Origin: Eunapius fragilis
Taxonomy: Eukaryota; Porifera; Demospongiae; Spongillida; Spongillidae
NCBI GenBank assembly: GCA_963681505.1
Contig: OY811977.1
Location: 4,779,264 to 4,843,263, forward strand
Direction: 5' to 3'
DNA length: 64,000 bases
The translations under genes and the position numbers were made by a program. This document shows positions 5,530 through 58,913 of the stretch, piece after piece. Position 1 is the first letter of the stretch; every line of letters begins with the position of its first letter. The notes beneath the pieces are model-generated. The model did not search any database. It was not told the origin of the DNA and saw only the letters and a program-made list of their open reading frames with translations.

Positions 5530-6345
5530 CAAGATCTTGCTTTCTTGCCCCTAGATCTTGCCTCCTTGCCCCTAGATCTTGGCCATGATCTTGCCTCCTT
5601 ACCCCTAGATCTTGGCCACGATCTTGCCTCCTTGGCCCTAGATCTTGGCCATGATCTTGCCTCCTTACCCCTAGATCTTGTCCATGATCTTGCCTCCTTG
5701 CCCCTAGATCTTGGCCACCATCTTGCCTCCTTGCCCCTAGATCTTGGCCACGATCTTGCCTCTCTGCCCCTAGATCTTGTCCATGATCTTGCCTCCTTGC
5801 CCCTAGATCTTGGCCACGATCTTGCCTTCTTGCCCCTAGATCTTGGCCACGATCTTGCCTCCTTGCCCCTAGATCTTGGCCATGATCTTGCCTCCTTACC
5901 CCTAGATCTTGGCCATGATCTTGCCTCCTTACCCCTAGATCTTGGCCATGATCTTGCCTCCTTGCCCCTAGATCTTTGCCATGATCTTGCCTCCTTACCC
6001 CTAGATCTTGGCCATGATCTTGCCTCCTTACCCCTAGATCTTGGCCATGATCTTGCCTCCTTGCCCCTAGATCTTGGCCATGATCTTGCCTCCTTGCCCC
6101 TAGATCTTGGCCATGATCTTGCCTCCTTGCCCCTAGATCTTGGCCATGATCTTGCCTCCTTACCCCTAGATCTTGGCCATGATCTTGCCTCCTTGCCCCT
6201 AGATCTTGGCCATGATCTTGCCTCCTTACCCCTAGATCTTGGCCATGATCTTGCCTCCTTGGCCCTAGATCTTGGCCATGATCTTGCCTCCATGCCCCTA
6301 GATCTTAGCCAAGATCTTGCTTCCTTTAGGCACGATCTCGCGCTA
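5530..6345. repeat. 33-bp minisatellite (about 24 copies)
   Basis: The unit is built on CCCCTAGATCTTGGCCATGAT plus CTTGCCTCCTTG. The 33-bp period keeps long ORFs open on both strands (KEARSWPRSRG on minus, LPLDLGHDLAS on plus), so these 280-residue ORFs should not be called genes. Variation is mostly ATG/ACG, TTG/TTA and single-base changes. Confidence 0.9.
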
Positions 6346-8732: not shown

Positions 8733-9120
8733 AGGAGGCTAGAGGAGGCAAGATCATGGCCAAGATCTAGGGACAAGGAGGCAAGATCATGGCCAAGATC
8801 TAGGGACAAGGAGGCAAAATCATGGCCAAGATCTAGGGGAAAGCAGGCAAGATCATGGCCAAGATCTAGGGGCAAGGAGGCAGCCAAGATCTAGGGGAAA
8901 GCAGGCAAGATCGTGGCCAAGATCTAGGGGCAAGGAGGCAGCCAAGATCTAGGGGCAAGGAGGCAAGATCGTGGCCAAGATCTAGGGACAAGGAGGCAAG
9001 ATCATGGCAAAGATCAAGGAGCAAGATCCTGGCCAAGATCTAAGGGCAAGGAGGTAAGATCTTGGCCATGATCTAGGGGCAAGGAGGCAAGATTGTGGCC
9101 AAGATGTAGGGGCAAGGAGC
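8733..9120. repeat. 33-bp minisatellite, opposite orientation
   Basis: The same unit as at 5.5-6.3 kb, read on the other strand (CATGGCCAAGATCTAGGG with AAGGAGGCAAGAT), with shorter and partly deleted units. The two arrays form an inverted pair about 2.4 kb apart. Confidence 0.85.
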
Positions 9121-10285: not shown

Positions 10286-10375
10286 TAAGGTTTATCTTGT
10301 ATATTGTAATTCATATAATTATGTAATTATAATCATAAAATGCAAAATAAAATAATAAAAAAGACAAGAAAAATG

Positions 10376-10800
10376 TTAGTGGACCTTTGCCTCTGCACAG
10401 GCCAACGCTATAGAATGGTGTTGTGAGTGGGAATGAAATGACCTGGTTCCTCGAAGGCACATGATCGCTGAGCAGAGTAATGAAAAACTCAGTTTGTATT
10501 GCAACCAAAAAAGAGTGGTAGAATAGGGTTCTTGTCTCTTGTCAGCAATTAATGATGCTATTCTCTTGTACACTGTGGTTGCTATGGGACCCATACCTCC
10601 AGCTGTAGAGAATACCAAGGGTGAAAAAGATCCATACTCAATCTCTCTTACTCTTTCTTCATATTTCCTCTTGTCCAGTTCATGCTTTCTATAGCATTTT
10701 GACATGGAGGAATTGGCATAGGATTGAGCAAATGGGTTGAATATTCTGACATCAAAGTAGGCAGTTTGGTGGTCTTTTTCCCAGAAATTCTGTGCAGCAA
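10376..10800 (-). pseudogene. C-terminal fragment of an RT/REL retroelement (block A copy 1)
   Basis: Reads TAYFDVRIFNPFAQSYANSS (about 10790-10710), then RKYEERVREIEYGSFSPLVF, STAGGMG and AIMCLRGTRS. It parallels the end of the larger RT ORF at 16-17.8 kb (AYFDVRVFHPNAPSY, VFTPLVFSTSGAMG, AIMCLRGSRS). A TTATT-rich tail follows at 10337. Only the region after the nuclease is left. Confidence 0.7.
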
Positions 10801-10943
10801 CATCAAGTCAAGCTCCTACCTCTCCATTGGCAGACTTATACTTTAGGTGCTCACCCTGCAATGGCTGCAATGTTGATTGCAATTGTACAGAAATTACTGT
10901 AACCATACGTGTTAAATATACACCTGGTCCTATATAATGTATA

Positions 10944-11195
10944 TGGGACAGTGTCTAACATAATCACCCTTGTGGTACTTTTTCAAAATTTCCAGGATAA
11001 TCAAAAGAAAAGTAACGCTTGCAATGAAAAGTATGGCTAATTAAAAATTCAGTGCCTTATAACTTTATGAGGGATAGTCCAATTTCAGATGCGTAAGATC
11101 CATTTGATAGAAGCCCTTTGGAGTTCATGGAAATTTTAAAAAATTGAAAACTTGAAAAAGTAGCCAGAAGGGTGATTTAGCTGGACACCGTCCCA
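10944..11195. mobile_element. 252-bp MITE with TA target duplication
   Basis: TIRs are TGGGACAGTGTC... and ...GACACCGTCCCA, extending imperfectly for about 55 bp. TA flanks both ends (10942-10943, 11196-11197). The empty site is seen in block A copy 2 at about 29080-29086 (AATGTATATGCAG), so insertion after the block duplicated is direct. Tc1/mariner-type mobilisation is inferred from the TA. Confidence 0.85.
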
Positions 11196-11512
11196 TACGC
11201 AGTTTGTGATCATAAGTTATTGAGCAGTAGAAGGCCCACCAGACTTATATGGAATCAATTGTCTTATGAAAATGAAGTACATAATCATGAACATGTATCA
11301 GCTGATATTATAAGGCGAAGTGTTAGACCGATAAGAGCTCGAGCATTCACCAGAAGAAAGGAAAAGTCAGAATTTTTTTTGAAAAAAAACATGACCTGTA
11401 CATAGCCACATAATGGACAATTGCAGCAATTTTGACCTATTCAAGTTAGCTTAAAAGTTCTGATGTTGAAATGATCCAGGAGTGTAGAAACATTGTGGTG
11501 TTGCCGTATGGC

Positions 11513-11792
11513 ATAGGCGGCCCCAGCGTTTACGAAGGGAGGGGCCGACCCCACGAAGGGCGCCAAAGGGGGAGGGGCATTATCGATTTTGCAATCTTAG
11601 TCATTTGTTCATCGCTATTTGTACGCTCAGATGAGTGTTACTAGCTATTTTACACATAGTTACATGTAGTAATCATATTGCAACCCTAGAGTAAAATTAC
11701 TTATAGGAGTTGGGGGGGCGCCATAACCAGGGGAGGGAGGTGCCATGGCCCCTGCCCCCCCCCCCCCCCCCCCCCATCCCGGGGCCGCCTAT
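11513..11792. mobile_element. GC-rich TIR element with 7-bp duplication
   Basis: TIR ATAGGCGGCCCC / GGGGCCGCCTAT, flanked by GTATGGC on both sides (11506-11512, 11793-11799). The second block copy has the same element at about 29395-29670. A C homopolymer lies near the right end. No ORF. Confidence 0.7.
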
Positions 11793-11920
11793 GTATGGCA
11801 CTGAATAACACGGAGAATTCTGCGGATTAACAGTTGGATCAATTTGTTTCTATATCAGTAGGATGTATTCTGAACTATGGAGCTATTCTTTGTCCAATAA
11901 CCAGACCAGTCTAAATGCTG

Positions 11921-12106
11921 ACAAGTAACTAAAAACATTCTCAACAAGAAAGCTGGTGGGAAATAGGATTTGAAGGCATAGTGGTGTAAAAAGCAAGAAA
12001 GCAATCAGGGGAAAATAAATAGAGTATACAAATAATATAATATCCAACAAATGTGGTAAATATAGGACTATTTATTTCACTCGTGAGAATGTTTTTAGTT
12101 ACTTGT
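11921..12106. mobile_element. MITE family M (ACAAGTAACTAAAAACATTCTC ends), copy 1
   Basis: It starts ACAAGTAACTAAAAACATTC and ends with the reverse complement GAATGTTTTTAGTTACTTGT. Internal GGTGTAAAAAGCAAG matches the members at 13.9 and 25.0 kb. Confidence 0.75.
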
Positions 12107-13133
12107 TTCATTGATATGAGTACGGCCCTAATCTAATAATACAATTACTAAAATACGGCATCAACTATTGGATCACAGAAGGCTCTTTTCCAGCCATTTT
12201 GAAATTGTGACACAAAAAATAGGTGAATGGGTACCAAATAAACAATCCGATCGTCATGCAGGAGTGTGTTTTTAATTATTTTATTGTCGTGAACCCTATC
12301 TGGAAGTTTCTAGCGAAATTTCCAATTATGAGACTAATTGCCTCAAATCAAAGACAAAGCCCAAAGTGTGGTGTCCGATTCCCTGTTTCAATCTTGAGGA
12401 ACAGAAATCATGAGATCTAGAGAGTGATGTGGAGACCTCCTGCTGTGCAATTAGCAGTATTAATATTCTAAACTATTGGAGTAATTATTTTCTCACCGTG
12501 ATTTCAATTTCAGTTCAGCAGTACTGCGCTTCTATTGATACCATAACTACAATTCTGGTTAGCAGCTGTTTATTCCAAAAGCTCATGCTATATGACCGAA
12601 TTGTTATGGAGGAGCTAGATCTTCTGCCATACTTGGCATGAAGCCAATGGACAGATGTGTACAAACAGAATGCACAGGTATGGATTTCACACATTCAGAG
12701 CTGTTTAGTTTTTTGACATGGTTTATTATATAATTATTATCATTATGTATGTACACATTTGCCATCCTCAGAGCAACAAACCTTTGTCTGAGGGGCTCCC
12801 ACACCAAATGGAGGAGTGCATTTGGAATGGATGATGGAGCAGGGTTACCTAGTATCTCTGCCTGAACGTCATGCTTAAATAGTTCATGTCATTATCATTT
12901 TTATTTGGTGTGTAATATTATTATTGTTTTTGCACCATATGTCTAAATGTATTATGTATTCTGTATATTACATTTATTTATACTGTCTAAAATTATTAAA
13001 ATAAATCTATTATTTATTTATTTTACCATTGATCAAATATAGCATATGTGTATGTAATTATTGCATACGTGAAATTGCCGCTATATAGTAGATGAAAGCT
13101 TTACGAGTGTTGGTGTCACAATATGGATATAAT

Positions 13134-13938
13134 GAGTGCAATACAAGACACGACAAGGTGTCAAGCCTTAGCGCGCTACTGAAAGGACCAACAAAGCGAC
13201 CACCCGAAGGTGCGTTACACCAAGAATGTTGAATCTGGACATAAATTATAGCGTGCATAGTGTATCGCAAAAATATTTTATGCAACAGTTACAGCGGAAG
13301 ATTTGCGTCTCTCTCCGTGCTGTTGTTTGAAATATGTGCACGCTGTTCGCTGACAATTTCGTAATAATGTAAATGTGTATTGTGGTGCATAATTTATATC
13401 TGATAATAGTGTCAAAGTTGCTGACGACAACGTATTGTGGCATGGTTGATCTGATAATAGCATGAGATCGTGGGTACATGTAATCTTTGTCTGATGTATT
13501 ATATGGCTTCGCTTGCCAGGAGGATTTGTTTTAACTAACGGTTGTTTAAATCACCTGTTCCAGGTCCAGGTCCAGGAGTCGCTCCACCTGCTCCACATCC
13601 AGGTCCAGGAGTGGTTCCATGTCCAGCTGCAGGATTAGCTCCACCTGCTCTACCTGCTATATATCCTGGATACAGAAGTATATCCTGGTCCAGAATATAC
13701 AGCAGTATATCCTGATCCAGGATATACAAGATGACACGCTCCTGGGTTTTATTATAGCTATAAAAGAACTTATTGTTTAAATAGTAATACTGTGTGTTTT
13801 AATGGTACACCCACACCTCAAAAAATTGCATGCATATGGCCACGAGATTCTAAAATAAAACTGTGATTTGACATTCTTGCTACATGGTTACGTTTCAAGA
13901 ACTAAATACAATACTAAATCCACCAAAAAATGTAGGAA
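13134..13938. other. Spacer with a Gly/Pro-coding stretch, otherwise unassigned
   Basis: Around 13560-13730 the plus strand repeats CCAGGTCCAGG and related units, which read PGPGPGVAPPAP in one frame. It is preceded by an acceptor-like CACCTGTTCCAG. It could be an exon of a low-complexity protein or only a degenerate minisatellite. The rest shows no gene. Confidence 0.4.
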
Positions 13939-14207
13939 ACAAGTGATAAAAACATTCTCTATGCGAGAAGGTTGGTGGTATATAGGAATCAAAGGCAGAG
14001 GTGGTGTAAAAAGCAAGGGAACAAGGATTGTGATTGAAAAGGAAAAATGAAATAGACCTATATAAGCAGCTTGTGTGTGCTAATATAGGTCTATTTCATT
14101 TTTTCTTTTCAATCACAATCCTTGTTCCCTTGCTTTTTACACCACCACCGCCTTTGATTCCTATATACCACCAACCTTCTCGCATAGAGAATGTTTTTAT
14201 CACTTGT
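13939..14207. mobile_element. MITE family M, copy 2 (long palindrome)
   Basis: Nearly its whole length folds back: ACAAGTGATAAAAACATTCT... at the left and the reverse complement ending CACTTGT at the right. The centre is around GCAGCTTGTGTGTGC, so the stems are about 125 bp. Confidence 0.8.
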
Positions 14208-14230: not shown

Positions 14231-14776
14231 TTAAATAATAATAAGAATAAGAATGTATGATGATGTGTCCTCACCTGCACCCTCTTCTTCTTCGGGGACG
14301 TCCTCCTCCCTGGCCTCCCCGCCATGCTTGTTCTGGCCAGGCGGGCCAGGGTGGCAGTGGCCATGCAGGCCAGGGGGGCAGCACTGGTGGTGGTGGTCGG
14401 GGCAACGCTGCTTCAGGAGGTGGCGGAGTGAAGGGGAGAGGAGTCGGAAGATGAATGTAGTCATCCTCTTCCTCCTTGGATCCCTCGTTGGTGAAAAACG
14501 TCTGAGGTCTTCAGCTGCCATCTACATGTACGTGACAGAGAGTATGATTAAATTTTTACCTCTTTTTTGCAAAGTGCACTATTCAGCGTGTGAGTGACTT
14601 TTACACCTTGCAAAGCCTTAAAACGTGTATAGACTGTGCTATAATTCTATTGGTCCAATTCCATCATTAAAATAACAAGGAGGGAAGGGGTGTATGTGTG
14701 TCAGTTGTGCTAAAAATCTATTGGTCAAATTTGATACAGTAAGAATGCTCCCATCGAAACATGGAGGTGTAGCCTA
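14231..14776 (-). repeat. Dispersed block B, copy 1, with a frame-broken acidic/Pro-rich ORF
   Basis: Matches 25295-26153 in the same orientation. On the minus strand from 14521 a reading frame begins MAAEDLRR. One frame shift separates it from the EEDDY...PTPLPFTPPPPEA reading kept intact in copy 2 (25853). It then runs into low-complexity sequence with a GGTGGTGG-type background. The shared N-terminus suggests the first exon of an element-borne gene. Function unknown. Confidence 0.6.
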
Positions 14777-15118
14777 TTAATGAGTAAGTTGGGTAAATAT
14801 AGGCCGTTTTAGGAGGAAGTAAAAAAAATAAAAGATCCGCTGATGAGTATTTTGCTTCTCAAATACAGGAATGTGAAAGAACAACTGTTAAGACAACATC
14901 TGATGCATTTTGTGAGAGATCATTCAACTTGCTGGATGCTACAAATGCGGCGATATAAAAGTGGTCCATGTCGATGAAACCATACTTCATCATCATAGAA
15001 AAACAGCAATAATCACATTGCATAAGCCAAGTTAAACTTTTAAACATTTCAATGCTTTTTCAATCATATGCAATGTTTTTTTTTACTATGTGCATGTGTT
15101 CTATCGTGTCTATAGAAC
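14777..15118. other. Unassigned spacer
   Basis: AT-rich sequence between block B and the long inverted repeat. No gene or repeat recognised. Confidence 0.6.
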
Positions 15119-15815
15119 TTCATTGAGTTGCACCCACAAGGTCAAGGGAATGTCTTCACTGACGTGCCAATCTAGAATTCTACCACTGTCTCTAAGTACA
15201 AGGTTCACGGTGGCACCACCTTCACTGTCCACCGCTAACAGAGATGAAATGGTAATGTCATCATCACCTGGTTTGGTTGGCTAGTTGGATGAAAAAAAAA
15301 TTGACATAAAGTTGAAGTTCATTTCATTTTAAAACAAAAACTATATAGATATCATGAATTTAAAAATACAGATGCATGAGGTAGGCATTTACCTACAAGC
15401 ACAACAGAAAATATGCTTCATGTGACCAATTATAATTATAGCAATATTGCAATTAGTGACACTAATGCTGAAAATTGAATTGCCGACGCTGGAATAGAAC
15501 TAAGGTCATTTCCTGCATCACGTGGATTATGACGATGTAACAACACTGATGCTGACGTTGACACAATATTAGACCCAACTAAACTTTCTCAAAAAATGTT
15601 TTACTTGTATTAGTGATGGTAACAATCATTCTTGTATCATTTGTCAAATAACAGAAGTCTAAGTAATAAGATGAACCATCCGTTGTTCTTATAGCAATAT
15701 GTCGTAACAGAGGTACCCGATACCTCTGCAATGATGCGTTGCAATGAGAGCAGTGGATGGTCTTAGTCTTACTGCCCAAACAGACAAGTACAATGTGGCA
15801 AAACAATCAAACATG

Positions 15816-17829
15816 TAATAATAATAATAGTAATAATAATAATATTTCTACAATCAACAAACACAATGATAACAACATAATTACCATGTACAATAACCAT
15901 AGAAATAGATACAGTCTATGAAGAGACTCTGCCCTCATGCACTGCTAGGGTCAGATCACAATAGATTGGGTGGTGGTAGGAAGACCTGCTTCCTCGTAGG
16001 CACATGATAGCATTGCGCAGTATGGCAAAAGACAGACGACATCTCAGCCAGCCCATAATGAGGGAATATGCTTTGTCTTGTTTTTCAGATAGTAGGTCAG
16101 CTAACCATTTGTAAAAAGTGGTGGCTTCTCTCCCCCATTGCACCCGAAGTGGAAAAAACTAGGGGTGTGAAAACACCATGTTCAACATCTCGAATACGTT
16201 GTCCATATTCTCTTTTCTTGGTTTGTTCATGGGTACGAAAAAGAGCGGAAAGAGATTTTGAAACGTAGCTAGGTGCATTAGGGTGAAAAACCCTTACATC
16301 AAAATATGCATCTTGGCTTTTGGACCAAAATCCTCTAGCTCTGATATCTGCCCTGGCCTCAGCATCTGTGTTGGCTGTGAGGTAAGAAAAGGTTTCTCCA
16401 TTAAGAGGTTGTAGTTGTGGCTCTGTTGCAACATTATAACAAACTTCCGTCAGCAATGAGGCTGTAAGATCTCTAATGTCATTGTGCCTGACAGTTAGGA
16501 AACCACCAAGATGGCAAGTCATGGCATGGTCAACAGAGAACTGTTTTCCACAACTGCAATGTTGAGGGACATTAGTAAGCGTCCAGTCGTACCTCAGACA
16601 CAAAGCATCACGAAACTCTCCTTTATTCAGATGGAAGCCATGATCTGCAATGGGAAGGGCAGATAACCAAGAGGACGAACCTTTTTCGCAGGCCTGATCA
16701 AAGCAGCGTTGCAACGACGGAGAGAGTAGCTTGTATATGCCTTCTGCTTTTTGTTGGAGTAATTTATGATTTTCCGAGCTGATATCTCTCTTCAGGGATT
16801 GAAGTAAGTTGTAATCTAGGTGAGTCTCGGTTCCTTTTGACATGATCATGTCAGCAAGGGGGGCAGTTAGTTTTACCGAAGCAAGAAAAGAAGGAGAGGA
16901 TGCCTCAATGGGGTTAGATATGCCCAGTCCCCCTAGTTTAACTGGTAGGGCAAGATAGCTACGTTCCAGACTGGAGCATGAAGGACGACCTGTTAAAGCT
17001 GGTAAGAGAAATTGATGAATTGCATATTCCAAAGGAACTAGTAGGTGTTGTATGTCCGACATTGTCCTTGAGACAAAGGTCCACCGACTGGAGAGACCAT
17101 GGGTGAATGCACTGTATGCTGAATGCGGGTGTGTGGCAGCAATACTTGCCAGACTCTTAACTTCCTCAACCCAGGTGCATACTTTGTTTCTGACATACTC
17201 TTCAGTGAAGGACTTAGAGCCAATGGCCGCCCCAAGACAACGCCTTCCAGCACAAATAGAAACATCAGTGCCAGCAAATAATTGTTTGGCCTTCTCAGCA
17301 TGCTCAGGTTTGGTGACAAAAAATGTTTTTGAGGGATTTGGATGGTATCCAAAATTAGGACCAGCCGAACACAGAGCATCCCACCATACTCTCAAATCAG
17401 CACATGACCCTGCACCAGATGCATCATCTGCATACCACACCTGATTAACTTGAGGGCATTTTGTATTCAGGGTCCGTATTAAGGGTATAACTCCCAGTGC
17501 ATACATACCCATGGCCAAGGGATCCCCCTGAGATGTTCCTTCAGAAGAAGATATTTCACCATTACCTGGGATGACAACCCTTATCGGGGTGCGATAGGTA
17601 TTTTGGAGGATCTGGAAAAATGGAGGACAGAGAACACTGATGTTGTGTAGTGCAGCTTGTCGGTTTAGCACATTAAAAGCGTTGTTGGCATCAACTAACA
17701 AAATACCTTCTGTGGAAGTGTTTGAGAAAAGCGTCTGTATAGCATGTATTGCAGCCTCACAACCTCCCACAAGGCCTGCACACAACTGTAGGGGACAAGT
17801 TGCATCAGCAATATCCTGACCAATAATGC
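15816..17829 (-). mobile_element. 5'-truncated non-LTR retrotransposon, 9-bp target duplication
   Basis: TCAAACATG flanks both ends (15807-15815 and 17830-17838). The other arm of the inverted repeat has the uninterrupted site at 20864-20874 (reverse complement of TCAAACATGGCTAG). On the minus strand the 3' end is an (ATT)n tail (15816-15845), as in several REL-bearing non-LTR clades. The 5' end is cut within the RT domain. Confidence 0.9.
15916..17829 (-). pseudogene. Reverse transcriptase with C-terminal restriction-like endonuclease, truncated and frameshifted
   Basis: The frame runs open from the element's truncated 5' edge. RT motif A is LLVDANNAFNVLNR. Motif B is EGTSQGDPLAMGMYALG. Motif C is the catalytic YADD (YADDASGAG). 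A thumb-like region carries LPVKLGGLGISNP. It then shows a zinc-knuckle pattern C-x-C ... H ... C (CSCGKQFSVDHAMTCHLGG) with RHND, followed by ARADIRARGFW and AYFDVRV, which fit a PD-(D/E)XK nuclease. This order (RT, CCHC, nuclease) is that of R2/NeSL/CRE-like elements, which cut and prime at the target. The frame shifts near 16130, after which the last 70 residues (TFYKWLADLLSEKQ...CLRGSRS) continue. The finger subdomain and anything upstream are missing, so it is dead on arrival. Confidence 0.8.
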
Positions 17830-19165
17830 TCAAACATGGCTAGAATGCTGGAATGGTGGAATGCAAACAACTTTGTTTTGCGTACCCCGCGATGTACAAA
17901 CGTGCTCTGAGATACATGCGCAGGACATTAGATGTCCTTTAAGGTTGTCGTGTAACAATTATACCATAATCATTAAGATTGTCGTAGTATTCGCTTGCAA
18001 AATTGATGAGCACAGAGTTGGTTGCCATGGCTCCCGAAAGATAAAACCCAAACCCCATACCTTTGCTTCATTCTTCTTATACATTCCGTCTGAATCATCA
18101 TTCCCTGACTTGCCATTCCAGAAACCAGAGCTAGTGTTAAAGTGGTGACATTTTAGATTTGACACGGAGGCATTAAATGGCTCCATGGCTGAAATGGAAG
18201 ACTGGGACTGTAGGAGAACATTTAAAAGCGAGCACTTCTGTATAGATATGAGGAAGCTGGGTTATGATGTGTGGAGAGATGGGAAGTGTTGAGAAATAGT
18301 GTGGAGAGAGGAGTACATGTATGGATTATAATTAACCTCTCAACACAGTGTATACACAAAAATCTGATAACATCACCACATATGTCAACTGCTATAACCT
18401 ACTCCTTAGTACAATAATATTCTCCATCCCCAATCTGCGTGGCAATGCCCCACTCAAACACTTGGCAAAAAATGGTTAACGATACACCGGTCTTGCACGG
18501 AGCTCCTAAAAATATTACTCACATACCTACTGGCAACACAAAATGGTTACATGTGCTGGATTGTCTTCCACAAAGTGCCCAAGCTTGTAATCCTCTCCAT
18601 CCCAAAGCAAGAAGTCTGCTGTTCAGTGGCAATGTTGTGTGCATGAAAACCAATTCATTAACAAAATACTTTGCTGGCCTATTTACTATCATTCAAAGCT
18701 CAATGACATTTCTACACAAAACCTTTCTTTTGAACCACTAGTCATACTAATATAGCTTCATTAAGACCTCAGAAAGAAAATCAACCAGTAACACAATGAA
18801 TGAATGAAAGGAAATCAATGTTTAAATTGCCTAGTTCAGTACACATGAACGTGCTTGTCAACACCACAGTAGTAACCATTTATGCTCAATACAGTTACTA
18901 TCACAAGTCAAAGGTATGAGAAACGAGACGACTTAACCAGACTTAGTTTGTGCAAAGGATTCTTTCTTGCGAACACGCAAGGCAGGAACCTTGCTTAAAC
19001 AAACCCGCCCCTCAACTTTTAATTTTGTATATGACTTTGCATCTTCTACTAATCCCACTAGCGTTACTACATACCAGGGCTGTAACTGTTGCAGCAATAA
19101 CTAATTCTTACTAAATACACAACCAGAAATATTAACTAATCGGTGACCGTATACACCTAGTACTG

Positions 19166-19441
19166 CTCTCAGTTTCAACGCATGTCTCAGTTTAAAAAAC
19201 TTGAAAAAGCGGAGAGGCTTATACAATCGAATTAACAACCAATTAGCAACTTCACGCTCAAGTCTCCGTACAATTTGGCTGTGTACAGGTACTGTATAGA
19301 TATAGTATTGGAACACCTATCGTACTACTAGTATCGTTCTAGCATCGCTACAGCATCGATGTAAACTGTAGCTTACGCTATCGTTACGGGCCTTTGCACT
19401 TTCGATCCCGAAACAAATATATGTTGTAGCTATCGGTACAG
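19166..19441. other. Spacer of the long inverted repeat
   Basis: A 276-bp unpaired centre between the arms. No ORF or terminal repeats. In a transcript it would be the loop of a hairpin of about 2 kb. Confidence 0.7.
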
Positions 19442-21634
19442 GGTGTATACGGTCACCGATTGGTTAATATTTCTGGTTGTGTCTTTAGAATTATAGTCAG
19501 TACAGCCCTGGTAAGTAGTAACGCTAGTGGGATTAGTAGAAGGCGCAAAGTCAAATGGCAACTAAAAGTTGAGGGGCGGGTTTGCTTAAGCAAGGTTCCT
19601 GCCGTGCGTGTTCGCAAGAAAGAATGCTTTGTTAAGTCTGGTTAAGTCGTCTCGTTTCTCAAAAGCGTATACCTTTAACTTGTGATTGAGCATAAATGGT
19701 CTCTACTGTGGTATGTGTTGACAAGCACGCTCATGTGTACTGAACTAGGCAATTTAAACATTGATTTCCTTTCATTCCTTCATTGTGTTACTGTAGGGCG
19801 ACGTTGATTTTCTTTCTGAGAAACAAAAATAACGTGTGCGGTGTGTAATCATGCCTCTAGTCACTCAACAAGGGGCAGCTGAGCGGTAAGTGTAATTCTT
19901 TGGTTATCGACATCAGAGTGTTGTTATGGGTAGAGAAATTACATATTTGAGGTCTTAATGAAGCTATATTAGTATGACTAGTGGTTCAAAAGAAAGGTTT
20001 TGTGTAGAAATGTAATTGAGCTTTGAATGATAGTAAATAGGCCAGCAAAGTATTTTGTTAATGAATTGGTTTTCATGCACACAACATTGCCACTGAACAG
20101 CAGACTTCTTGCTTTGGGATGGAGAGGATTACAAGCTTGGGCACTTTGTGGAAGACAATCCAGCACATGTAACCGTTTTGTGTTGCCAGTAGGTATGTGA
20201 GTAATATTTTTAGGAGCTCCGTGCAAGACCGGTGTATCGTTAACCATTTTTTGCCAAGTGTTTGAGTGGGGCATTGCCACGCAGATTGGGGATGGAGAAT
20301 ATTATTGTACTAAGGAGTAGGTTATAGCAGTTGACATATGTGGTGATGTTATCAGATTTTTGTGTATACACTGTGTTGAGAGGTTAATTATAATCCATAC
20401 ATGTACTCCTCTCTCCACACTATTTCTCAACACTTCCCATCTCTCCACACATCATAACCCAGCTTCCTCATTTCTATTCCGAAACGCTCGCTTTCGAATG
20501 TTCTCCTACAGCCCCAGTCTTCCATTTCAGCCGTGGAGCCATTTAATGCCCTCCGTGTCGAATTTAAAGTGTCACCACTTTAACATTAGCTCTGGTTTCT
20601 GGAATGGCAAGTCAGGGAATGAGGATGCAGGTGGAATCGATGAGAAGAATGAAGCAAAGGTATGGGGTTTGGGTTTTATCTTTTGGGAACCATAGCAACC
20701 AACTCTGTGCTCATCAATTTTACTAGTGAATACTACGACAATCTTAATTGTTACACGACAACCTATGGACATCTAATGTCCTGGGCAAAGTATCTCAGAG
20801 CACGTTTGTACATAGCGGGGTACGCAAAACAAAGTTGTTTGCATTCCACCATTCCACCATTCTAGCCATGTTTGATTGTCTTGCCACATTGTACTTGTCT
20901 GTTTGGGCAGAAGCTTTGTAAGACTAAGACCATCCACTGCTCTCATTGCAATGCATCATTGCAGAGGTGTCAGGTACCTCTGTTACGACACATTGCTATA
21001 AGAACAGCAGATGGTTCATCTGTTCCTGTTTGGAGACTACTTATTGCTTAGACTTCTTTTATTTGACAAATGATGCAAGAATGTATTATGTTACCATCTC
21101 TAGTACAAGTAAAACATTTTTTGAGAAAGTTTAGTTGGGTTGACAATGTGATATTCTGTCAACGTCAGAATCAGTGTTGTTGAATCGTCATATTGTGAAT
21201 ATTTCCCAGCATCATTGACGTGATGCGGAAATAGACCTTAGTTCTATTCCAGCGTCGGCGATTCAATTTTCAGCATTAGTGTCACTAATTGCAATATTGC
21301 TATAATTATAATTGGTCACATGAAGCATATTTTCTGTTGTGCTTGTAGGTAAATGCCTACCTCATGCATCTGTATTTTTAAATTCATGATATCGTATATA
21401 GTTTTTGTTTTAAAATCAAATGAACTTCAACTTTATGTCAATTTTTTTTCATCCAACTAGCCAACCAAACCAGGTGATGATGACATTACCATTTCATCTC
21501 TGTTAGCGGTGGACAGTGAAGGTGGTAGCAATGATGCCACCGTGAACCTTGTACTTAGAGATTGTGGTAGAATTCTAGATTGGCACGTCAGTGAAGACAT
21601 TCCCTTGACCTTGTGGGTGCAACTCAATGAAGAG
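19442..21634. repeat. Right arm of the long inverted repeat
   Basis: Reverse complement of the left arm. It holds about 120 bp absent from the left arm (about 19830-19950) and the empty target site of the retrotransposon. It ends inside the 5' part of the Crinkler-like gene, so that gene begins within the repeat. Confidence 0.9.
19851..19885 (+). CDS. Possible short first exon (MPLVTQQGAAER)
   Basis: ATG at 19851 opens twelve codons ending exactly at a strong donor GCG|GTAAGTG. It lies in the segment present only in the right arm, on the same strand as the Crinkler-like gene 1.6 kb downstream. It may be that gene's first exon. No transcript evidence exists here. Confidence 0.3.
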
Positions 21635-23876
21635 AATAAGAAAAACATACTCTTTGAACTGGGAAGCGCAGTGGAAAACGCGGTCCACATCATTGACACG
21701 GACCGACGAACCCAAGTTGCACTAACTGCTTCACTAACTGCTTCAATAACTGCTTCACTGTCCAACATGGGCATTTTGTACCTATCACAATGGGAAAGGA
21801 TTCCAGTGTAGAAACAGGATCAGATGTTGTCGCATAATATGTTGCGTTTCTTGAGGATGAGGATAGGGATCTTGAGGGAATGGAATATATTTGTCAGTAA
21901 CATAGTTCGGAATAAGAAGGAGAACCCAGATTATTTGATGTTGACTCCCCACCATTTCTTTGAGACCGATTCAGGACAAACAACATCCATGCTTGGAAAA
22001 GATCGGAATTCTGATCTAAATAATCTAATTAAACTACAGATAAATAACGAAAACATGGGAGGGGCCAAAGAGCTACACCCTGTACATTCCTTAATTGCCC
22101 AACCCCGACAGGGAAAGTCTCTTTTCTTGGATGTTGTCAGTGAGCGTTTCAGACAGAAAGGCAGGTTTGCTGTGTGCATCACATACAACGGTGAGAGCAA
22201 ATATGATGAAATGGATTCCTTTCCAGAGAGCTTAGCATTCCGTTTTTGGGCCCGTGTGGTCCTTGCCATTGTCAATGCAGTACAGAAAGACGTGATAAGA
22301 TGGGACATTTTTAAGAGAAGTTCCTTTATTCCGTATCTCACAATTCGTCATGTTTTTGAGTTGATCAACAAGTGCATACCTGAGTTTGCAGAGAAACCCA
22401 TTTTTTTGCTGCTGATGAGTTTTCTCATGTCCTGGAGGCCCTGAGGAACAATAAGAAATTGTCGCTGCTTCAAAAAAAAGAAGCAATCTCCTCTATTACA
22501 GTTCCCATTTATTCTAACTTCTGCTCACTGATGTTTTCTGGGTTTGAGACTTGGAGCAAAGTGTTCTTTTGCACCTTGAGTGGGCGTCCAGTTAACAGTG
22601 TGTGGTTGCTCCCGGTAACACAGTCAGAGCGCCACCATTATAAACCACTCATTGATCAACTGATGGATTTCTACAAAAAGAACGACCAGTTTCCATTTGC
22701 AGTGTATGAATGGACCAAGTTCTCACCTGGACTGATGGGGCGGTGGCTTGAATTGCTCAAAACATCCGTAGTAGTGAAATCCATCAAAGATATTACCACT
22801 ATACCAATGATGGATGTCACTAAAAGTAAGGTCCAAAATAATCCCTTATTTTTTGCAGAGTATTGGAAGGAATGTTTTGACCTGATTAATACCAAGGATA
22901 TCCTGGAACTGAGGTGTATGCAAAAATACGAAGAAGAAGGAGTCTATCTCCTCATGTCACATTCAAAAGGATTTCTCAATCCCTTTGTTATCATCCACCC
23001 TGATATCGTACAATATTACCCGACATCAGAGAGGAAAGTGTTTGAACGCATCTTAGATGCTTTTACTGGGGAAACATGGAACTCGAATGCTAAAGGTAAA
23101 TCACTGGAGGTTATGATTGCGGGTGCACTGGAACTCAGACAGATCCACTCTACTGGTTTACTTGAATTCAGCACCATTGTTAGTGCACTCTGTGGTCAGA
23201 ATAAGTCTTCAAAAGATGTACTTGTAACTAATGCAAAAGTTAGATATCGCAAGTCCGTTGCTATCTAGAGAATTAAAGACATTTCCATGCCATTCGTTTG
23301 GACAGGAGGGTGATCCTTCTGGCGCAGGATTGAACGCACTAGAACTAGAGAAACAGAGGGAGGCTGGTGTTGTAGCTCTCAAGTCCCATGGCTTGATGCA
23401 TCCCACATCAACCAGCAATACAGGGTGTGATGTGGTAATGGTGGTTGATTTTGAGGATAAGGATAAAGGGGTAGCTCTTTTGATGTTTGAATGCATGTAC
23501 TATCTACCTAAGACCCCTCTTAGTAGCCAAGCAGCATCAAGGAAGGCATGGTTAGCACTAAATGGACTTTTGAGTGGGGGCAGTTGGTGACTGTGTAGTG
23601 TCCCACGTGTGCTTCACAATGTGCACTACAGTTGCTGACAAAGATATAAAGTACAATATGAACTACCGACCAAAGGGTGGAAAGCGGTCACTGGGAGAGT
23701 GTATCGAAGTGTTGAAGAAGAACAAGACAACTGTGTCTCTCCACCAAGTGTCAAAGGAAGACCACTGGATGAAGCTACTAACACCAGTGTTGTACTATGG
23801 CCTGCCTGATGTGGCAGAGAATACAAAATTTGAAAATGTAAAGCTCGGGCATAATGTAGCAGAAGTGCTGGCTTGA
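21462..23876 (+). pseudogene. Crinkler/RHS-type P-loop NTPase plus nuclease-like gene, frame-broken
   Basis: Five successive plus-strand frames join into one protein. N-terminal part: VNLVLRDCGRILDWHVSED (about 21550-21600). P-loop region at 22095-22150: HSLIAQPRQGKSLFLDVVSE, with a GKS but an Ala for the first Gly of Walker A. Then CITYNGES, and a Walker-B-like FLLADEFSH (about 22390-22425) that needs a one-base shift in a T run. Further on, VWLLPVTQSERHHYKP and FERILDAFTGETWNSNAKG. The C-terminal block CDVVMVVDFEDKDKG then VALLMFECMYY (23430-23510) resembles a PD-(D/E)XK core with the usual Lys missing. Breaks: stop at 21809, shift near 22405, shift near 23265, shift near 23580 (G run). Two of these sit in homopolymers, so they could be sequence errors. 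The family name is inferred from architecture; other STAND/AAA transposon ATPases are possible. Confidence 0.5.
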
Positions 23877-23879
23877 TCA

Positions 23880-24974
23880 AGACTCAAACGTTAAAAACTG
23901 CATTAATCATTTAATCGTGTATTATGTGAGCTTGTCAATTTGATTCATTAGTACGGTAGGTTAACATATACCTACCTAAATGTTATGATACTTAGGTGCA
24001 CCTAGGGATTACCTAATAAAATAGGTTAGCCTAACTCTAACCTATGTCAGACAAAGGTTAACCTAAGATTACCTAGACAATCCCCATGTTGCGGTGGTAA
24101 GGATTCCTTACCCTGATTTACTGAGATTAAATTGTTTGAACCTTGTTGCTATCCTTGCAAAAGAAATGCACCACTTGAAGGAGGAGAGGGCCCTGTTGCT
24201 ATATGAAATTGTCCAAAAGAAAAGCACCACTTGAAGGAGAGGGCCCTGTTGCTATGAAATCGTCCTTTATGTTGTTATGCACTACCCCTCTATAATAATT
24301 GATTTCCCCTCAGTGGAAAACCTAATAAACCTGCACACCTTACCTTGTCTTCTGCATTCTATGTCCCCATGGCCTATCTCCTCTCTCCCTCGTTCCCCTC
24401 GTCTTTGGCATCCTGAGGTTTGATCTCAGCTTTATACACATACATAGTCAGCACTGATGAAATTGATTTATGAGGGGGTGGGGATTGTGTCCCGATTCAA
24501 GCTATCTTGTTGTCATGCTGCGTACTAAGGTATACTTCACCCCTTGCCCCCTCCCCCATTCAGTATGATGTAATTTATGAACGATCCTTTCTTACAAACA
24601 TCAGTCAGGTCAGTTTCTATACCAAACAAGATTCGATGAGCGATCAAAATGCGTACCATCACCATACGCAGTACACAACGTCATGTAGAAATCATGTGCC
24701 TCCTGTCAGTCATACTCTTTAGGTGCCAATTCCTGTGTGGCTATTTTTCATTTCATTGTCATGGCACACCCATATGCAAACACACCCACACATTTATACA
24801 CATTATTATTTCCACCATAAGACACTGTAGCCATGTACCCCTGGAGCCTCTGTTATGTTGCTATTACCCTGCCTTGACCTTCTACTATGTGCCCCTCTTT
24901 TATGTTGCTCTATCTTCCCTCTCCTATATGTACCCCAGCCTAATCTTGCTACGTACAAGTACATTCTGAGTTGT
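23880..24974. other. Intergenic stretch with short repeats
   Basis: Around 23955-24085 AGGTTA/TAACCT units recur, and 24170-24265 holds a tandem duplication of about 57 bp (GCACCACTTGAAGGAG). No gene is recognised. Confidence 0.6.
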
Positions 24975-25230
24975 TGGTATGTAGGATTGACCAATGGTGG
25001 TGTAAAAAGCATGGAACAAGAGTGACAGAAATTTTACTGGAAAATTGAAATAGACCTATATTTAGCCCATTACTCAAGCATGCGCTGTTATTTTATGTAT
25101 GCTAAATACAGGCCTATTTCAATTTTCCAGTAAATTTGTCACTCTTGTTTCCATGCTTTTCACACCACCATTGGTCAATTTTATATACCAACAACTCTTT
25201 CGTTAGAGAATGTTTTTATTTACTTGTTTC
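24975..25230. mobile_element. MITE family M, copy 3 (left end truncated)
   Basis: Palindromic centre with AAATTGAAATAGACCTATAT and its reverse complement, and right end GAGAATGTTTTTATTTACTTGT. The left ACAAGTRA... end is missing. Confidence 0.7.
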
Positions 25231-28474: not shown

Positions 28475-31003
28475 GTAAAATACAAAATAAAATAATAAAA
28501 AGACAAGACCAAATGAAAAATGTTCAGTGGACCTTTGCCTCTGCACAGGCCAACGCTATAGAATAGTGTTGTGAGTGGGAATGAAATGACCTGGTTCCTC
28601 GAAGGCACATGATCGCTGAGCAGAGTAATGAAAAACTCAGTTTGTATTGCAACCAAAAAAGAGTGGTAGAATAGGGTTCTTGTCTCTTGTCAGCAATTAA
28701 TCTTGTACACTGTGGTTGCTATTGCCATACATGTACCTCCAGCTGTAGAGAATACCAAGGGTGAAAAAGATCCATACTCAATCTCTCTTACTCTTTCTTC
28801 ATATTTCCTCTTGTCCAGTTCATGCTTTCTATAGCATTTTGACATGGAGGAATTGGCATAGGATTGAGCAAATGGGTTGAATATTCTGACATCAAAGTAG
28901 GCAGTTTGGTGGTCTTTTTCCCAGAAATTCTGTGCAGCAACATCAAGTCAAGCTCCTACCTCTCCATTGGCAGACTTACTTTAGGTGCTCACCCTGCAAT
29001 GGCTGCAATGTTGATTGCAATTGTACTGAAATTACTGTAACCATACGTGTTAAATATATACACTTGGTCTTATATAATGTATATGCAGTTTGTGATCATA
29101 AGTTATTGAGCAGTAGAAGGCCCACCAGATTTATATGGAATCAATTGCCTTATGAAAATGAAGTACATAATCATGAACATGTATCAGCTGATATTATAAG
29201 GCGAAGTGTTCGATAAGAGCTCGAGCATTCACCAGAAGAAAGAAACGTCAGAATTTTTTTGAAAAAAAACATGACCTGTACATAGCCACATAATGGACAA
29301 TTGCAGCAATTTTGAACTATTCAAGTTAGCTTAAAAGTTGTGATGTTGAAATGATCCAGGAGTGTAGATAACATTGTGGTGTTGCCGTATGGCATAGGCG
29401 GCCTCAGCGCTTACCGAAGGGAGGGGCCAACCCCACGAAGGGCGCCAAAGGGGGAGGGGCATTATCGATTTTGCAATCTTAGTCATTTGTTCATCGCTAT
29501 CAGATGAGTGTTAGTAGCTATTTTACACATAGTTATATGTAGTAATCATATTGCAACGCTACAGTAAAAATTACTTATAGGAGTTGGGGGGGGGGCGCCA
29601 TAACCAGGGGAGGGAGGTGCCATGGCCCCCCCCCCCCCCCCCCCCCCCCCATCCCGGGGCTGCCTATGTATGGCACTGAATAACACGGAGAATTCTGCGG
29701 ATTAACAGTTGGATCAATTTGTTTCTATATCAGTAGGATGTATTCTGAACTATGGAGCTATTCTTTGTCCAATAACCAGACCAGTCTAAATGCTGACAAG
29801 TAACTAAAAACATTCTCAACAAGAAAGTTGGTGGGAAATAGAATTTGAAGGCATAGTGGTGTAAAAAGCAAGGAAGCAATAAAGGGAAAATAAATAGAGT
29901 ACACAAATAATATAATATCCAACAAATGTGGTAAATATAGGACTATTTATTTCACTCGTGAGAATGTTTTTAGTTACTTGTTTCATTTATATGAGTAACA
30001 TTCAGTACGGCCCTAATCTAATAATACAATTACTAAAATACGGCATCAACTATTGGATCACAGAAGGCTCTTTTCCAGCCATTTTGAAATTGTGACACAA
30101 AAAATAGGTGAATGGGTACCAAATAAACAATCCGATCGTCATGCAGGAGTGTGTTTTTAATTATTTTATTGTCGTGAACCCTATCTGGAAGTTTCTAGCG
30201 AAATTTCCAATTATGAGACTAATTGCCTCATATCAAAGACAAAGCCCAAAGTGTGGTGTCCGATTCCCTGTTTCAATCTTGAGGAACAGAAATCATGAGA
30301 TCTAGAGAGTGATGTGGAGACCTCCTGCTGTGCAATTAGCAGTATTAATATTCTAAACTATTGGAGTAATTATTTTCTCACCATGATTTCAATTTCAGTT
30401 CAGCAGTACTGCGCTTCTATTGATACCGTAACTACAATTCTGGTTAGCAGCTGTTTATTCCAAAAGCTCATGCTATATGACCTAATTGTTATGGAGGAGC
30501 TAGATCTTCTACCATACTTGGCATGAAGCCAATGGACAGATGTGTACAAACAGAATGCACAGGTATGGATTTCACACATTGTTTAGTTTTTTGACATGGT
30601 TTATTATATAATTATTATCATTATGTATGTACACATTTGCCATCCTCATGCAACAAACCTTTGTCTGAGGGGCTCCCGCACCAAATGGAGGAGTGCATTT
30701 GGAATGGATGATGGAGCAGGGTTACCTAGTATCTCTGCCTGAACGTCATGCTTAAATAGATCATGTCATTATCATTTTTATTTGATGTGTAATATTATTA
30801 TTGTTTTTGCACCATATGTCTAAATGTATTATGTATTCTGTATATTACATTTATTTATACTGTCTAAAATTATTAAAATAAATCTATTATTTATTTATTT
30901 TACCATTGACATATGTGTATGTAATTATTGCATACGTGAAATTGCCGCTATATAGTAGATGAAAGCTTTACGAGTGTTGGTGTCACAATATGGATATAAT
31001 GAT
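28475..31003. repeat. Composite dispersed block A, copy 2
   Basis: Counterpart of 10337-13133. It includes the RT/REL C-terminal fragment (minus, about 28510-28935), the GC-rich TIR element, MITE M copy 4 (29796-29981) and the (ATTT)n end. It lacks the 252-bp MITE of copy 1 and has small indels. Confidence 0.9.
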
Positions 31004-37307: not shown

Positions 37308-40300
37308 TGTGCTGCTATCCATGTAATGTGCATGAACACAATAAGATTAAGATACACTGCGTACATGCACATGTATACCTAATCATATGCCTTGCTGCAA
37401 CATCACACCACAGAGGACTGGACATAGGAGCACTACAGCCAAGGGTTATCGCCTAGGCATCAATCAGGAGACAATCAGTGATAATACGCATGCATACATG
37501 TTTTTTGCCAGAACGTTCGCCATGTACACGAAAACATGAGTAAGGTACATGTACCTCATAGCAAAACAGCTAATATATTATGTGAGTGCAAAAAATGTTG
37601 TACTGACTAAAAATATTATGCCCAGCTGCCAGGAAGCTTTACACTTGTACTACATGTAGCTCATCATTGAGTGTTGTCATCAAATTGATGCAAAGATCAC
37701 ATAAACTGCACATGTGCAAGGGAAAAAGGAAAAGAGGCCGCAAATAAGTCACTCACACAATCATTTCCAGTAAACTGTGTTGATAGAATGGTCTCAATAA
37801 GCTGCACAAGGTCACTTGCTGTTGGAATAGGTAGGCTTGGAGAAGAGATCAAGCATCTACACATGTGGGAGAGGTCCTGTAATTCACATGACTGCACATA
37901 GTATTTTGATTTATATATGCAATGGTTCAATTCCCATAAGTGCTTTTAACAATGTATTTATTCTTTTTTTTTACAGAGGACTTATGCATGTACACATCTG
38001 CTATACACAGTATACCAAACAACCCTCTGTGAGACCTAAATGTTGCAGTTTAAGACACTAGCATCAATCAGGCAAAAGCAGTCATCCCTGCCTTCTTCCT
38101 CACCTTCTACATCCCTCCACACCCTCACCTTCCCCTCCCCCACCATCTTCACACTTACACCCTCCTTTTGGTTTCCTTAGCAATCTACCTTTTACAACTC
38201 TCTCTTCTCCCTTTACATTTCTTTAGACATTAAATTATTATTTACCTTCCAGATTCACCCACTAATACGTACAACTGCATGCAGTACAACATAAAGCATG
38301 TAAAATACCTCCACGAATCAGGGTAGTTTTCCTCAGTAGTAGTAAGCACAACATGGATGTTGGCAGGTAATGGCTTAACTATCCAGGAAAAGTGGTTCTC
38401 GAAGCCCTAGGAATGGGGCAATGAAAGCCAACTACAGGCAGCACTACGTGTACAGATATCCATGACACCACCCTAATAAATGCATATGCACCATAACCAA
38501 TGCCCATGTACACAAAAAAGCCTCACTGTAATGAGATCAGCACTATCTATGACAATAACAACTTTCTCTGCATTTGGTTTTCCAAGTGTGGTTGATAACT
38601 TCTGCATCCACTTCATGAAGCACTCATTAAGCTGAGATACGTCAATGAATGGCTGGCTAGTCTCCTTACAGTGGAACATCATCTGTGGGCAAGAGGCAAT
38701 GGTTAAAGGACGTCCACATGTATGTGTACATGCACAATGTGAATACATGGATTTCCAGTGGTGTGGTGAAAACCAATACCTTCTGTACAAATCTCCTGAT
38801 AATAGTTGCATACTCTGCACTGGAAGTTCCCAAACACTTCACAAAGTGGTATAAGACAATTAGCTTGTCCCCTTGAGAGAACTGAAGATGTTCAATCCTC
38901 AAAAAGAATAAGAAACGTTAGCCGTGTGGTTTGTGAGAGCTTACAACATACCATTTTGCCATCATGGTTGTTTTACCATATCCAGGAGGCCCAGTTAGTA
39001 CAAGTCCAGTTGCCGGTCCAGTGCCTGCCAAATGTTCTTCCAAACACTGAAATATCTACAACACAAATTTCATCCTAATACCATGGTTCCAATAGTTACA
39101 TGTTTTTAAACCTCATTAGATCCAAGAATGTAGTAAAATTAACGTGAGTTACATTAACCTTAATTTTGCAAAATGTTTGGATCAAAATGAGGTCAAAAAA
39201 ATCAAGTTGTTACAGGAACAGAGTACCAACTACAATGATTTAAAATATATATATTTCTAACAGATAATATTATCTCCCTCAATCTCAGATAATACTTTTA
39301 CTCAAAGGCATTCAACAGCTAGTCTTCACATTATGAATCAAATTTAAACAGCTTTTGATGCAAGTTCTCCATCCATGGTTTATTATTTTTGTTCCAAGGA
39401 CCAACCTACACCAAACTGGTTAAGGAAGAGCTCAGCATCAAAAGGGCAATAGATATTGAATTATTAATAACAGGTTTCCTACCACTGTAGAAAGATTTTC
39501 TACATCTGTGGAGTATGTCTAAAACTGCGCTCAAGAGCATTGACAAGAAGGGTATGAGTGGGAATGCAACATTGCATCACATTTAGCTCAAATGCCAAAG
39601 TGCAGCAAAGAATTAACCCCCCCCCCCCCTCCCCTTCTTCCCCGAGTTACTCACACTGGATTCAAAGTGCATAGTCTCATAATAGGGTCATTTCACAGGA
39701 AACAGGACCACCCTCAAACCATCACCATCTTATATCCTTGTACAACTTCCATATATATTTTCCCTTTCGAACTACACTAAATTGCTGTATATTTGTATAC
39801 CCCAAGTTATTTGGTTTATAAAATGCAACCATTTGAATAATTAATTTTTTGGTGTCCTTTAGCACTTTGAAGGGAGATTTCTATAGGGTCTTTACAAGTG
39901 TTAGTACAATATTTGCTCAGTATCATAGGTGCTAGCCAAGTGACAAAAAGCAACGCAGATTTTTATAGCTATGCATAAGGGGTTAAAGTAGACGATGAAT
40001 ATGTTATGAGAATTATAGCAGCAAAAAAAATAACATACAATTACACCATTTTTTAATGAGTAGCTTTTTACTTCAAGATCACTTTGCTTTATATTTTATT
40101 GAGATTCATATACATTGGCTGTTTTAATTACAGTGTCCATTTTGATTCCCTTATGTGTTACATGTACATGGTGTTTGTGATAAAGTTGTGATTGAGAGAA
40201 AGGTAGGTCTCTCTATTACAACTTTGTCACTAACAAGTTGTAACACATCAGGGAATCAAAATGGATGCTATAATTAAAACAGATTTCCCAGCCCAATGTA

Positions 40301-58794: not shown

Positions 58795-58913
58795 TCTGCC
58801 TTCAAGTCCGAACTTGCTAGAGTAAGCACTATCATGTGACTGGGGGTGTTCTAATAGTCAGCTTTACGTCATTGTGAGCTAATTATAGATACGTGTAAAC
58901 GGATTTGGAAATT
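58795..58913. promoter_or_regulatory. Divergent promoter shared by tetraspanin B and chitobiase
   Basis: Only 119 bp separate the two start codons. It contains TCATGTGAC (58832-58840), an M-box/CLEAR-like E-box, and TTTACGTCATTG (58862-58873), a CRE/ATF-like site. No TATA box is evident. Factor binding is inference. Confidence 0.5.

What the first reader, a model, noticed from the sequence alone, without database searches (positions are those of the whole stretch)
15119..21634. Long inverted repeat (about 2 kb arms, 276-bp spacer) overlapping the 5' part of a Crinkler-like gene
Both arms are nearly identical by eye over their length, including a 100-codon ORF with two substitutions. The right arm contains the gene's 5' coding part, and the left arm carries an inverted extra copy of it. 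Transcription across this locus would give a hairpin with the gene's own 5' sequence in the stem, a natural source of small RNAs that could silence the gene and its relatives. The structure is seen; the silencing role is inference.
Basis: partly seen in the sequence, partly recalled or inferred. Interest (0 to 1): 0.75.

Follow-up and report, generated by a model that had tools for sequence, protein, structure and literature searches.

The report
Inverted partial gene copy, decaying palindrome
In what is probably a sponge chromosome, an interrupted ATPase-type gene sits head-to-head with a truncated inverted copy of its own start region; the palindrome is real but looks like ordinary duplication debris rather than a proven gene-silencing device.

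Summary
The inverted repeat is real: left arm 15118-15815 plus 17830-19163, right arm 19436-21632, spacer 272 bp. The arms are 95.5% identical over 1971 aligned sites with 23 gap events, not nearly identical throughout. A young 2.0-kb reverse-transcriptase (LINE-type) fragment splits the left arm; none of the 5 other arm copies carries it.

Only about 172 bp of the right arm is supported as coding. The left arm lacks the candidate start exon, the "100-codon ORF" is not conserved, and the adjoining gene is interrupted. Related arms lie 55-66 kb and about 130 kb away, in a nest of segmental duplications. One of these palindromes (U3) has lost the core of its left arm. Site patterns indicate arm-to-arm gene conversion in a 0.47-kb core.

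Best reading: a head-to-head partial inverted duplication, copied by segmental duplication, partly homogenised and now decaying. Silencing is not excluded: the arms share 877 perfect 21-mers, and Dicer- and Piwi-type domains are encoded. No RNA data were available, and both gene starts face outward, so a hairpin needs read-through from outside an arm.

The parts
15118..15815 (-). Left arm, outer part (inverted copy of 20867-21632). Includes the counterpart of exon 2 at 15118-15280; its outer end lies inside that exon.
15816..17829 (-). Young non-LTR (LINE-type) reverse-transcriptase fragment inserted in the left arm; 9-bp target-site duplication at 15807-15815 and 17830-17838.
   Evidence: RVT_1 E 7.5e-5, below the curated cut-off; not in 5 of 5 other arm copies; copies at 99-100% elsewhere; duplication seen
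17830..19163 (-). Left arm, inner part (inverted copy of 19436-20875), lacking the candidate first exon.
19164..19435 (.). Spacer, 272 bp; about 19155-19273 and 19284-19441 match dispersed repeats.
19436..21632 (+). Right arm, continuous with the gene.
19851..19885 (+). Candidate first coding exon (ATG, then a GTAAGT donor); present in U1, U2R and U3R, absent in U2L and U4; U3L lacks the region.
   Evidence: exon status inferred
19948..20420 (.). Core of the arm in which the two window arms differ at 1 of 472 sites; gene-conversion tract (pairs with about 18298-18771).
21461..23876 (+). Gene of a P-loop NTPase-type family; its reading is spread over frames ending at 21811, 22444, 23268, 23590 and 23876.

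Best explanation
A head-to-head partial inverted duplication in a family of NTPase-type genes. The 5' region of one gene, up to partway into exon 2, came to lie inverted upstream of a full-length relative. This left a truncated copy without the candidate start exon, facing away across a repeat-filled spacer. The palindrome-bearing unit was copied by segmental duplication (U3, and a further inverted left-arm copy, U4). The two arms in the window exchanged sequence by gene conversion in a core of about 0.47 kb, and a LINE-type element later inserted into one arm. Shown: the structure, the absence of the insert in the other copies, shared junctions, mosaic site patterns, the interrupted gene. Inferred: the order of events, and the absence of a selected function.
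For: Arms, insert and 9-bp duplication. The insert is absent in 5 of 5 other arm copies and has 99-100% copies elsewhere. The left-arm/spacer junction is shared by U2, U3 and U4, and the left outer flank by U2 and U4. Nested local duplications. Site patterns: 33 sites group U2R with U3R and 0 group the two U2 arms in the blocks 19436-19793, 20421-20870 and 20871-21340; in the core it is 0 and 3 (Fisher p 1.4e-4). Core tree support for the U2 arms together is 96. Longest identical run of the U2 arms, permutation p 0.0007. Interrupted frames. U3L has lost the core.
Against: The core is somewhat conserved in all 10 pairs tested, and two other pairs also gave low permutation p (U2L/U3R 0.0013, U3R/U4 0.0093; no correction for 10 tests), so constraint may explain part of the signal. 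Only 3 sites carry the grouping of the U2 arms in the core. Support for one left-arm clade (U2L, U3L, U4) is weak (42 and 79), and U1 falls on the left-arm side of the unrooted trees, so the source of the left arm is not settled. Absence of function cannot be shown without RNA data.
Confidence: 0.75

Rival explanations
1. A young hairpin-RNA locus: a + strand transcript starting left of 15118 runs through both arms, Dicer cuts the stem, and the siRNAs silence paralogues of the U1/U3R type.
For: 877 perfect 21-mers between the arms, 584 in U3R and 293 in U1, of which 88 and 24 from the exon-2 part. U3 keeps 313 shared 21-mers. Dicer-dimer and Piwi domain matches. In Drosophila, hpRNAs arise from partial 5' duplications next to their target gene, and transcription across divergently oriented relatives has been proposed as a source (PMC10317233, passages).
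Against: Gene starts face outward. The flank just left of the left arm is dispersed repeats, and no promoter or transcript is known. U3 has lost the core of its left arm. The stem shares 0 21-mers with the two distant paralogues given. PMC6211395 (passages) attributes most unique endo-siRNAs of the sponge Amphimedon to cis-antisense pairs rather than hairpins, although hairpin RNAs are also reported there.
Confidence: 0.13
2. A divergent gene pair sharing a promoter in the spacer: the left copy makes a short sense transcript or decoy RNA.
For: Head-to-head orientation with a 272-bp spacer.
Against: The left copy lacks the candidate first exon and its donor, ends inside exon 2, and carries a 2-kb insert. 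Most of the spacer is dispersed repeat.
Confidence: 0.07
3. An assembly artefact (fold-back of a long read, or misjoined haplotypes).
For: Inverted duplications are a known failure mode of long-read assembly (recalled).
Against: 4.5% substitutions and 23 gap events, an insert with its duplication in one arm only, and the same inner junction at U3 and U4. The only N run in the 290 kb examined lies 77 kb away.
Confidence: 0.03

Closest known systems
Palindromic inverted duplications with gene conversion between arms (springtail Folsomia candida, PMC5490193, passages; human Y palindromes as cited there)
   Same: Inverted arms carrying gene sequence; a tract where the arms are more alike than expected; part of a duplicated gene cluster.
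   Different: Much smaller; one arm is truncated and lacks the candidate start exon; conversion is seen only in a core of about 0.47 kb; the related copy U3 is decaying.
Drosophila hairpin-RNA (hpRNA) loci, some born from partial 5' duplications beside the target gene (PMC10317233, passages)
   Same: A long inverted repeat with homology to nearby gene relatives; 877 shared 21-mers.
   Different: No primary transcript or siRNA evidence here; gene starts face outward; the stem is mostly sequence not shown to be coding.
Crinkler (CRN) proteins with P-loop NTPase plus REase-type nuclease (PMC5289972, passages)
   Same: P-loop NTPase-type fold in homologues; a multi-copy family with interrupted members.
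   Different: No LXLFLAK or HVLVXXP motif found, no Pfam match for the window's gene pieces; the host is probably a sponge.

Membership tests
Palindrome with arm-to-arm gene conversion | Two inverted arms of high identity | tested here: met
   95.5% over 1971 aligned sites
Palindrome with arm-to-arm gene conversion | A tract where the arms are closer to each other than to their counterparts in duplicated copies | tested here: met
   Core: 3 sites group the U2 arms, 0 group U2R with U3R; three other blocks: 0 and 33; permutation p 0.0007. Part of the signal may be constraint.
Hairpin-RNA (hpRNA) locus | Long inverted repeat able to pair over many Dicer-length stretches | tested here: met
   24 perfect runs of 21 bp or more; 877 shared 21-mers
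Hairpin-RNA (hpRNA) locus | Sequence complementarity to other genes | tested here: met
   584 of 877 21-mers in U3R, 293 in U1, 0 in two distant paralogues
Hairpin-RNA (hpRNA) locus | One primary transcript across both arms | not testable with these tools
   No RNA data
Hairpin-RNA (hpRNA) locus | Dicer-dependent 21-22-nt small RNAs | not testable with these tools
   No small-RNA data; Dicer-dimer and Piwi domain matches exist in the genome
Crinkler (CRN) protein | Header with LXLFLAK and HVLVXXP motifs | tested here: not met
   No match in six frames of 14500-24500 nor in P0001-P0013. Motifs only; a diverged ubiquitin-like header was not tested, and P0004-type frames may lack the true N-terminus.
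Crinkler (CRN) protein | P-loop NTPase domain | tested here: met
Crinkler (CRN) protein | REase-superfamily nuclease domain | tested here: inconclusive
   A D...ExK-like pattern near the C-terminus of P0009-P0011 is seen by eye only; no Pfam match; that part of the model has low confidence

The most novel reading that the evidence does not exclude
A nascent RNAi locus in a sponge: a partial 5' inverted duplication, kept pairable by arm-to-arm gene conversion, makes hairpin siRNAs that restrain a duplicating NTPase/nuclease-type gene family, a parallel to Drosophila hpRNAs in an early-branching animal.
Probability: 0.1. Interest if true: 0.65.

Novelty: new member of a known kind. Interest (0 to 1): 0.27.

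Why it matters
As debris it is a compact example of how a palindrome is made, copied, partly converted between its arms and then decays in a repeat-rich invertebrate genome. If it did make siRNAs, it would extend the hairpin-RNA route of gene-family control to an early-branching animal. Small-RNA libraries would settle which.

Tried and rejected
Coding role of the 107-codon frame in the core: rejected, broken in 3 of 3 other copies that have it. Not fully rejected: two shorter frames stay open in most copies, 20027-20200 (57 codons, 4 of 5) and 20866-21051 (61 codons, 5 of 6), so an unrecognised exon in the arm is possible. RNA-pairing selection: 32 arm differences would still pair as G-U in a + strand transcript, 20 would not, and 37 are transversions; I treat this as no evidence, because mutation bias is uncontrolled. 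Rfam: 0 matches at 14500-22000. Pfam at E up to 1: none for the two gene frames of the window nor for P0004, P0006, P0007, P0008, P0009, P0010; P0003 and P0011 had only hits under the curated cut-off. PDB sequence search: 2 matches, best E 0.41. RdRP: no match, but the control was silent too, so absence is not shown. Dicer-dimer: 4 matches, but the control rang in 0 of 14 genomes; Piwi control rang in 1 of 14. The promoter scan uses a bacterial consensus and says nothing here. The first structure model (mean pLDDT 55.5) and its Foldseek list agree with an AAA+-type fold at weak scores; the Foldseek job was not collected, and re-ranks the Foldseek matches of the same model. Papers holding both 'crinkler' and 'sponge': 2 listed, off topic by title and abstract.

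Dropped rows: U3L was left out of the core comparison because it lacks the core. Hits under 50 bp or 60 bp, and inverted pairs under 200 bp or 80%, were dropped. In some searches only 40 of 61, 611, 127 and 1612 candidates were scored, so copy counts are lower bounds. Of the four distant paralogues two were fetched, with about 2.0 and 1.6 kb upstream of the homology, so exons further upstream could be missed.
Full report
Setting. The window is G000:C7:4779264-4843263 of a 219-Mb genome in 24 contigs. The only hit with a label that suggests a species is Em0006g1189a, at 31% identity to the gene beside the right arm; that 'Em' stands for the sponge Ephydatia muelleri is recalled. The host is probably a sponge; this is an inference.

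The repeat. Self-comparison gives an inverted repeat with left arm 15118-15815 + 17830-19163, right arm 19436-21632 and a 272-bp spacer. With the insert left out, the arms share 1882 of 1971 aligned sites (95.5%), with 278 gap columns in 23 events. Divergence is uneven: 1 of 472 sites in 19948-20420 and 88 of 1499 elsewhere.

The insert in the left arm. Positions 15816-17829 hold a reverse-transcriptase fragment on the minus strand (580-codon open frame; RVT_1 E 7.5e-5, below the curated cut-off). It is flanked by the same 9 bases on both sides. None of U1, U2R, U3L, U3R and U4 carries it (5 of 5); in four of them the two flanks meet with the 9-bp overlap, while U1 differs by a few bases there. 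Four other copies match all 1.7 kb searched at 99-100%, so the insertion is recent.

Relatives. In 290 kb around the window I found U1 (gene on the minus strand, 4657564-4668611, with no inverted partner found), U2 (the window palindrome), U3 (left arm 4849107-4851549; right arm and gene 4854325-4858974) and U4 (4860785-4864103, a left-arm-type copy that runs on into the same flank as window 14581-15117, to 4864631). The left-arm/spacer junction recurs in U3 and U4. U3L has lost the part that corresponds to 18259-18862, and U3 has insertions in its left arm and spacer. U2 and U3 are 96% identical over 20069-25186. U1 continues from the right arm into part of the spacer (19383-19435, 79%), so that part is probably ancestral upstream sequence. 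Two more local duplications, 10336-13135/28476-31002 and 31591-33834/4846524-4849105, show that the palindrome lies in a nest of segmental duplications. Four more distant paralogues, at 68-69%, lie on C4 and C10.

What the arms contain. Two of those four paralogues were fetched. Their homology to the window begins at 21441, next to a splice-acceptor-like site at 21459-21460 that opens the frame shared with P0004. So about 172 bp of the right arm is supported as coding. A candidate first exon (ATG at 19851, donor at 19886) is present in U1, U2R and U3R and missing from U2L and U4; U3L lacks the whole region. In U2L about 131 bp is gone between two TGAG tetramers, consistent with end joining at a microhomology (inference). 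The gene's reading is spread over frames ending at 21811, 22444, 23268, 23590 and 23876; U3R has two long frames, 410 and 401 codons.

Gene conversion. Among U2R, U2L, U3R and U4, sites grouping U2R with U3R number 13, 11 and 9 in the blocks 19436-19793, 20421-20870 and 20871-21340, with none grouping the two U2 arms. In 19948-20420 there are 3 grouping the U2 arms and none grouping U2R with U3R. In 21341-21632 there is 1 grouping the U2 arms, and at 20472-20485 there are 4 grouping U2R with U4 (and so U2L with U3R). Trees agree: the split of U2R and U3R from the rest has support 100 in the two blocks outside the core that were built, and the U2 arms together have 96 in the core; U1 falls on the left-arm side, and the left-arm clade itself has only 42 and 79. 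Over 211 variable columns the longest identical run of the U2 arms has permutation p 0.0007; U2L/U3R (0.0013) and U3R/U4 (0.0093) are also low, without correction for 10 pairs. The core diverges less than the rest in all 10 pairs, so part of the signal may be constraint.

Spacer and base rate. About 19155-19273 and 19284-19441 match dispersed repeats. In the 290 kb there are 9 rows of inverted pairs of at least 500 bp within 20 kb, 4 from this family and 5 not. Long inverted repeats are not rare here.

Silencing. Sequence allows it: 877 perfect 21-mers between the arms, 584 in U3R with its gene, 293 in the U1 pieces, 0 in the two distant paralogues; of 109 from the exon-2 part, 88 and 24 recur in U3R and U1; U3's own arms still share 313. 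Dicer-dimer and Piwi domains are matched in the genome. Precedents: Drosophila hpRNAs (PMC10317233, passages), and small RNAs matching Crinkler genes in Phytophthora infestans (PMC3522703, passages). But both copies read outward from the spacer, so a hairpin needs read-through from outside an arm, and the sequence just outside the left arm is dispersed repeats. PMC6211395 (passages) argues that most unique endo-siRNAs of Amphimedon come from cis-antisense pairs, and says that Amphimedon encodes no RdRP. Without RNA data the role is open; I put it at 0.13.

Noticed in passing
39682-40725: A 1044-bp sequence that is its own inverted repeat (85.5% self-complementary), another hairpin-capable element in the window.
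   Followed up: partly
13939-14207: A 269-bp near-perfect palindrome (94%) just outside the left arm, of the size of a short dispersed element.
   Followed up: no
5554-6326 and 8743-9119: Two arrays of the same 33-bp minisatellite in opposite orientation, 23 and 12 copies.
   Followed up: no
10336-13135 and 28476-31002: A local direct duplication at 94-96% on either side of the palindrome; the longer piece (11195-13135) has only these two long matches among those scored in the genome.
   Followed up: partly
15816-17829: The inserted reverse-transcriptase family looks recently active: four other copies match 1.7 kb at 99-100%, among many shorter ones.
   Followed up: partly
58899-60014: An open frame with a glycosyl hydrolase family 18 (chitinase-type) domain, E 7.4e-29.
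   Followed up: no
41235-41814: A 24-bp tandem array, 24 copies, 97% matches, with open frames on both strands.
   Followed up: no
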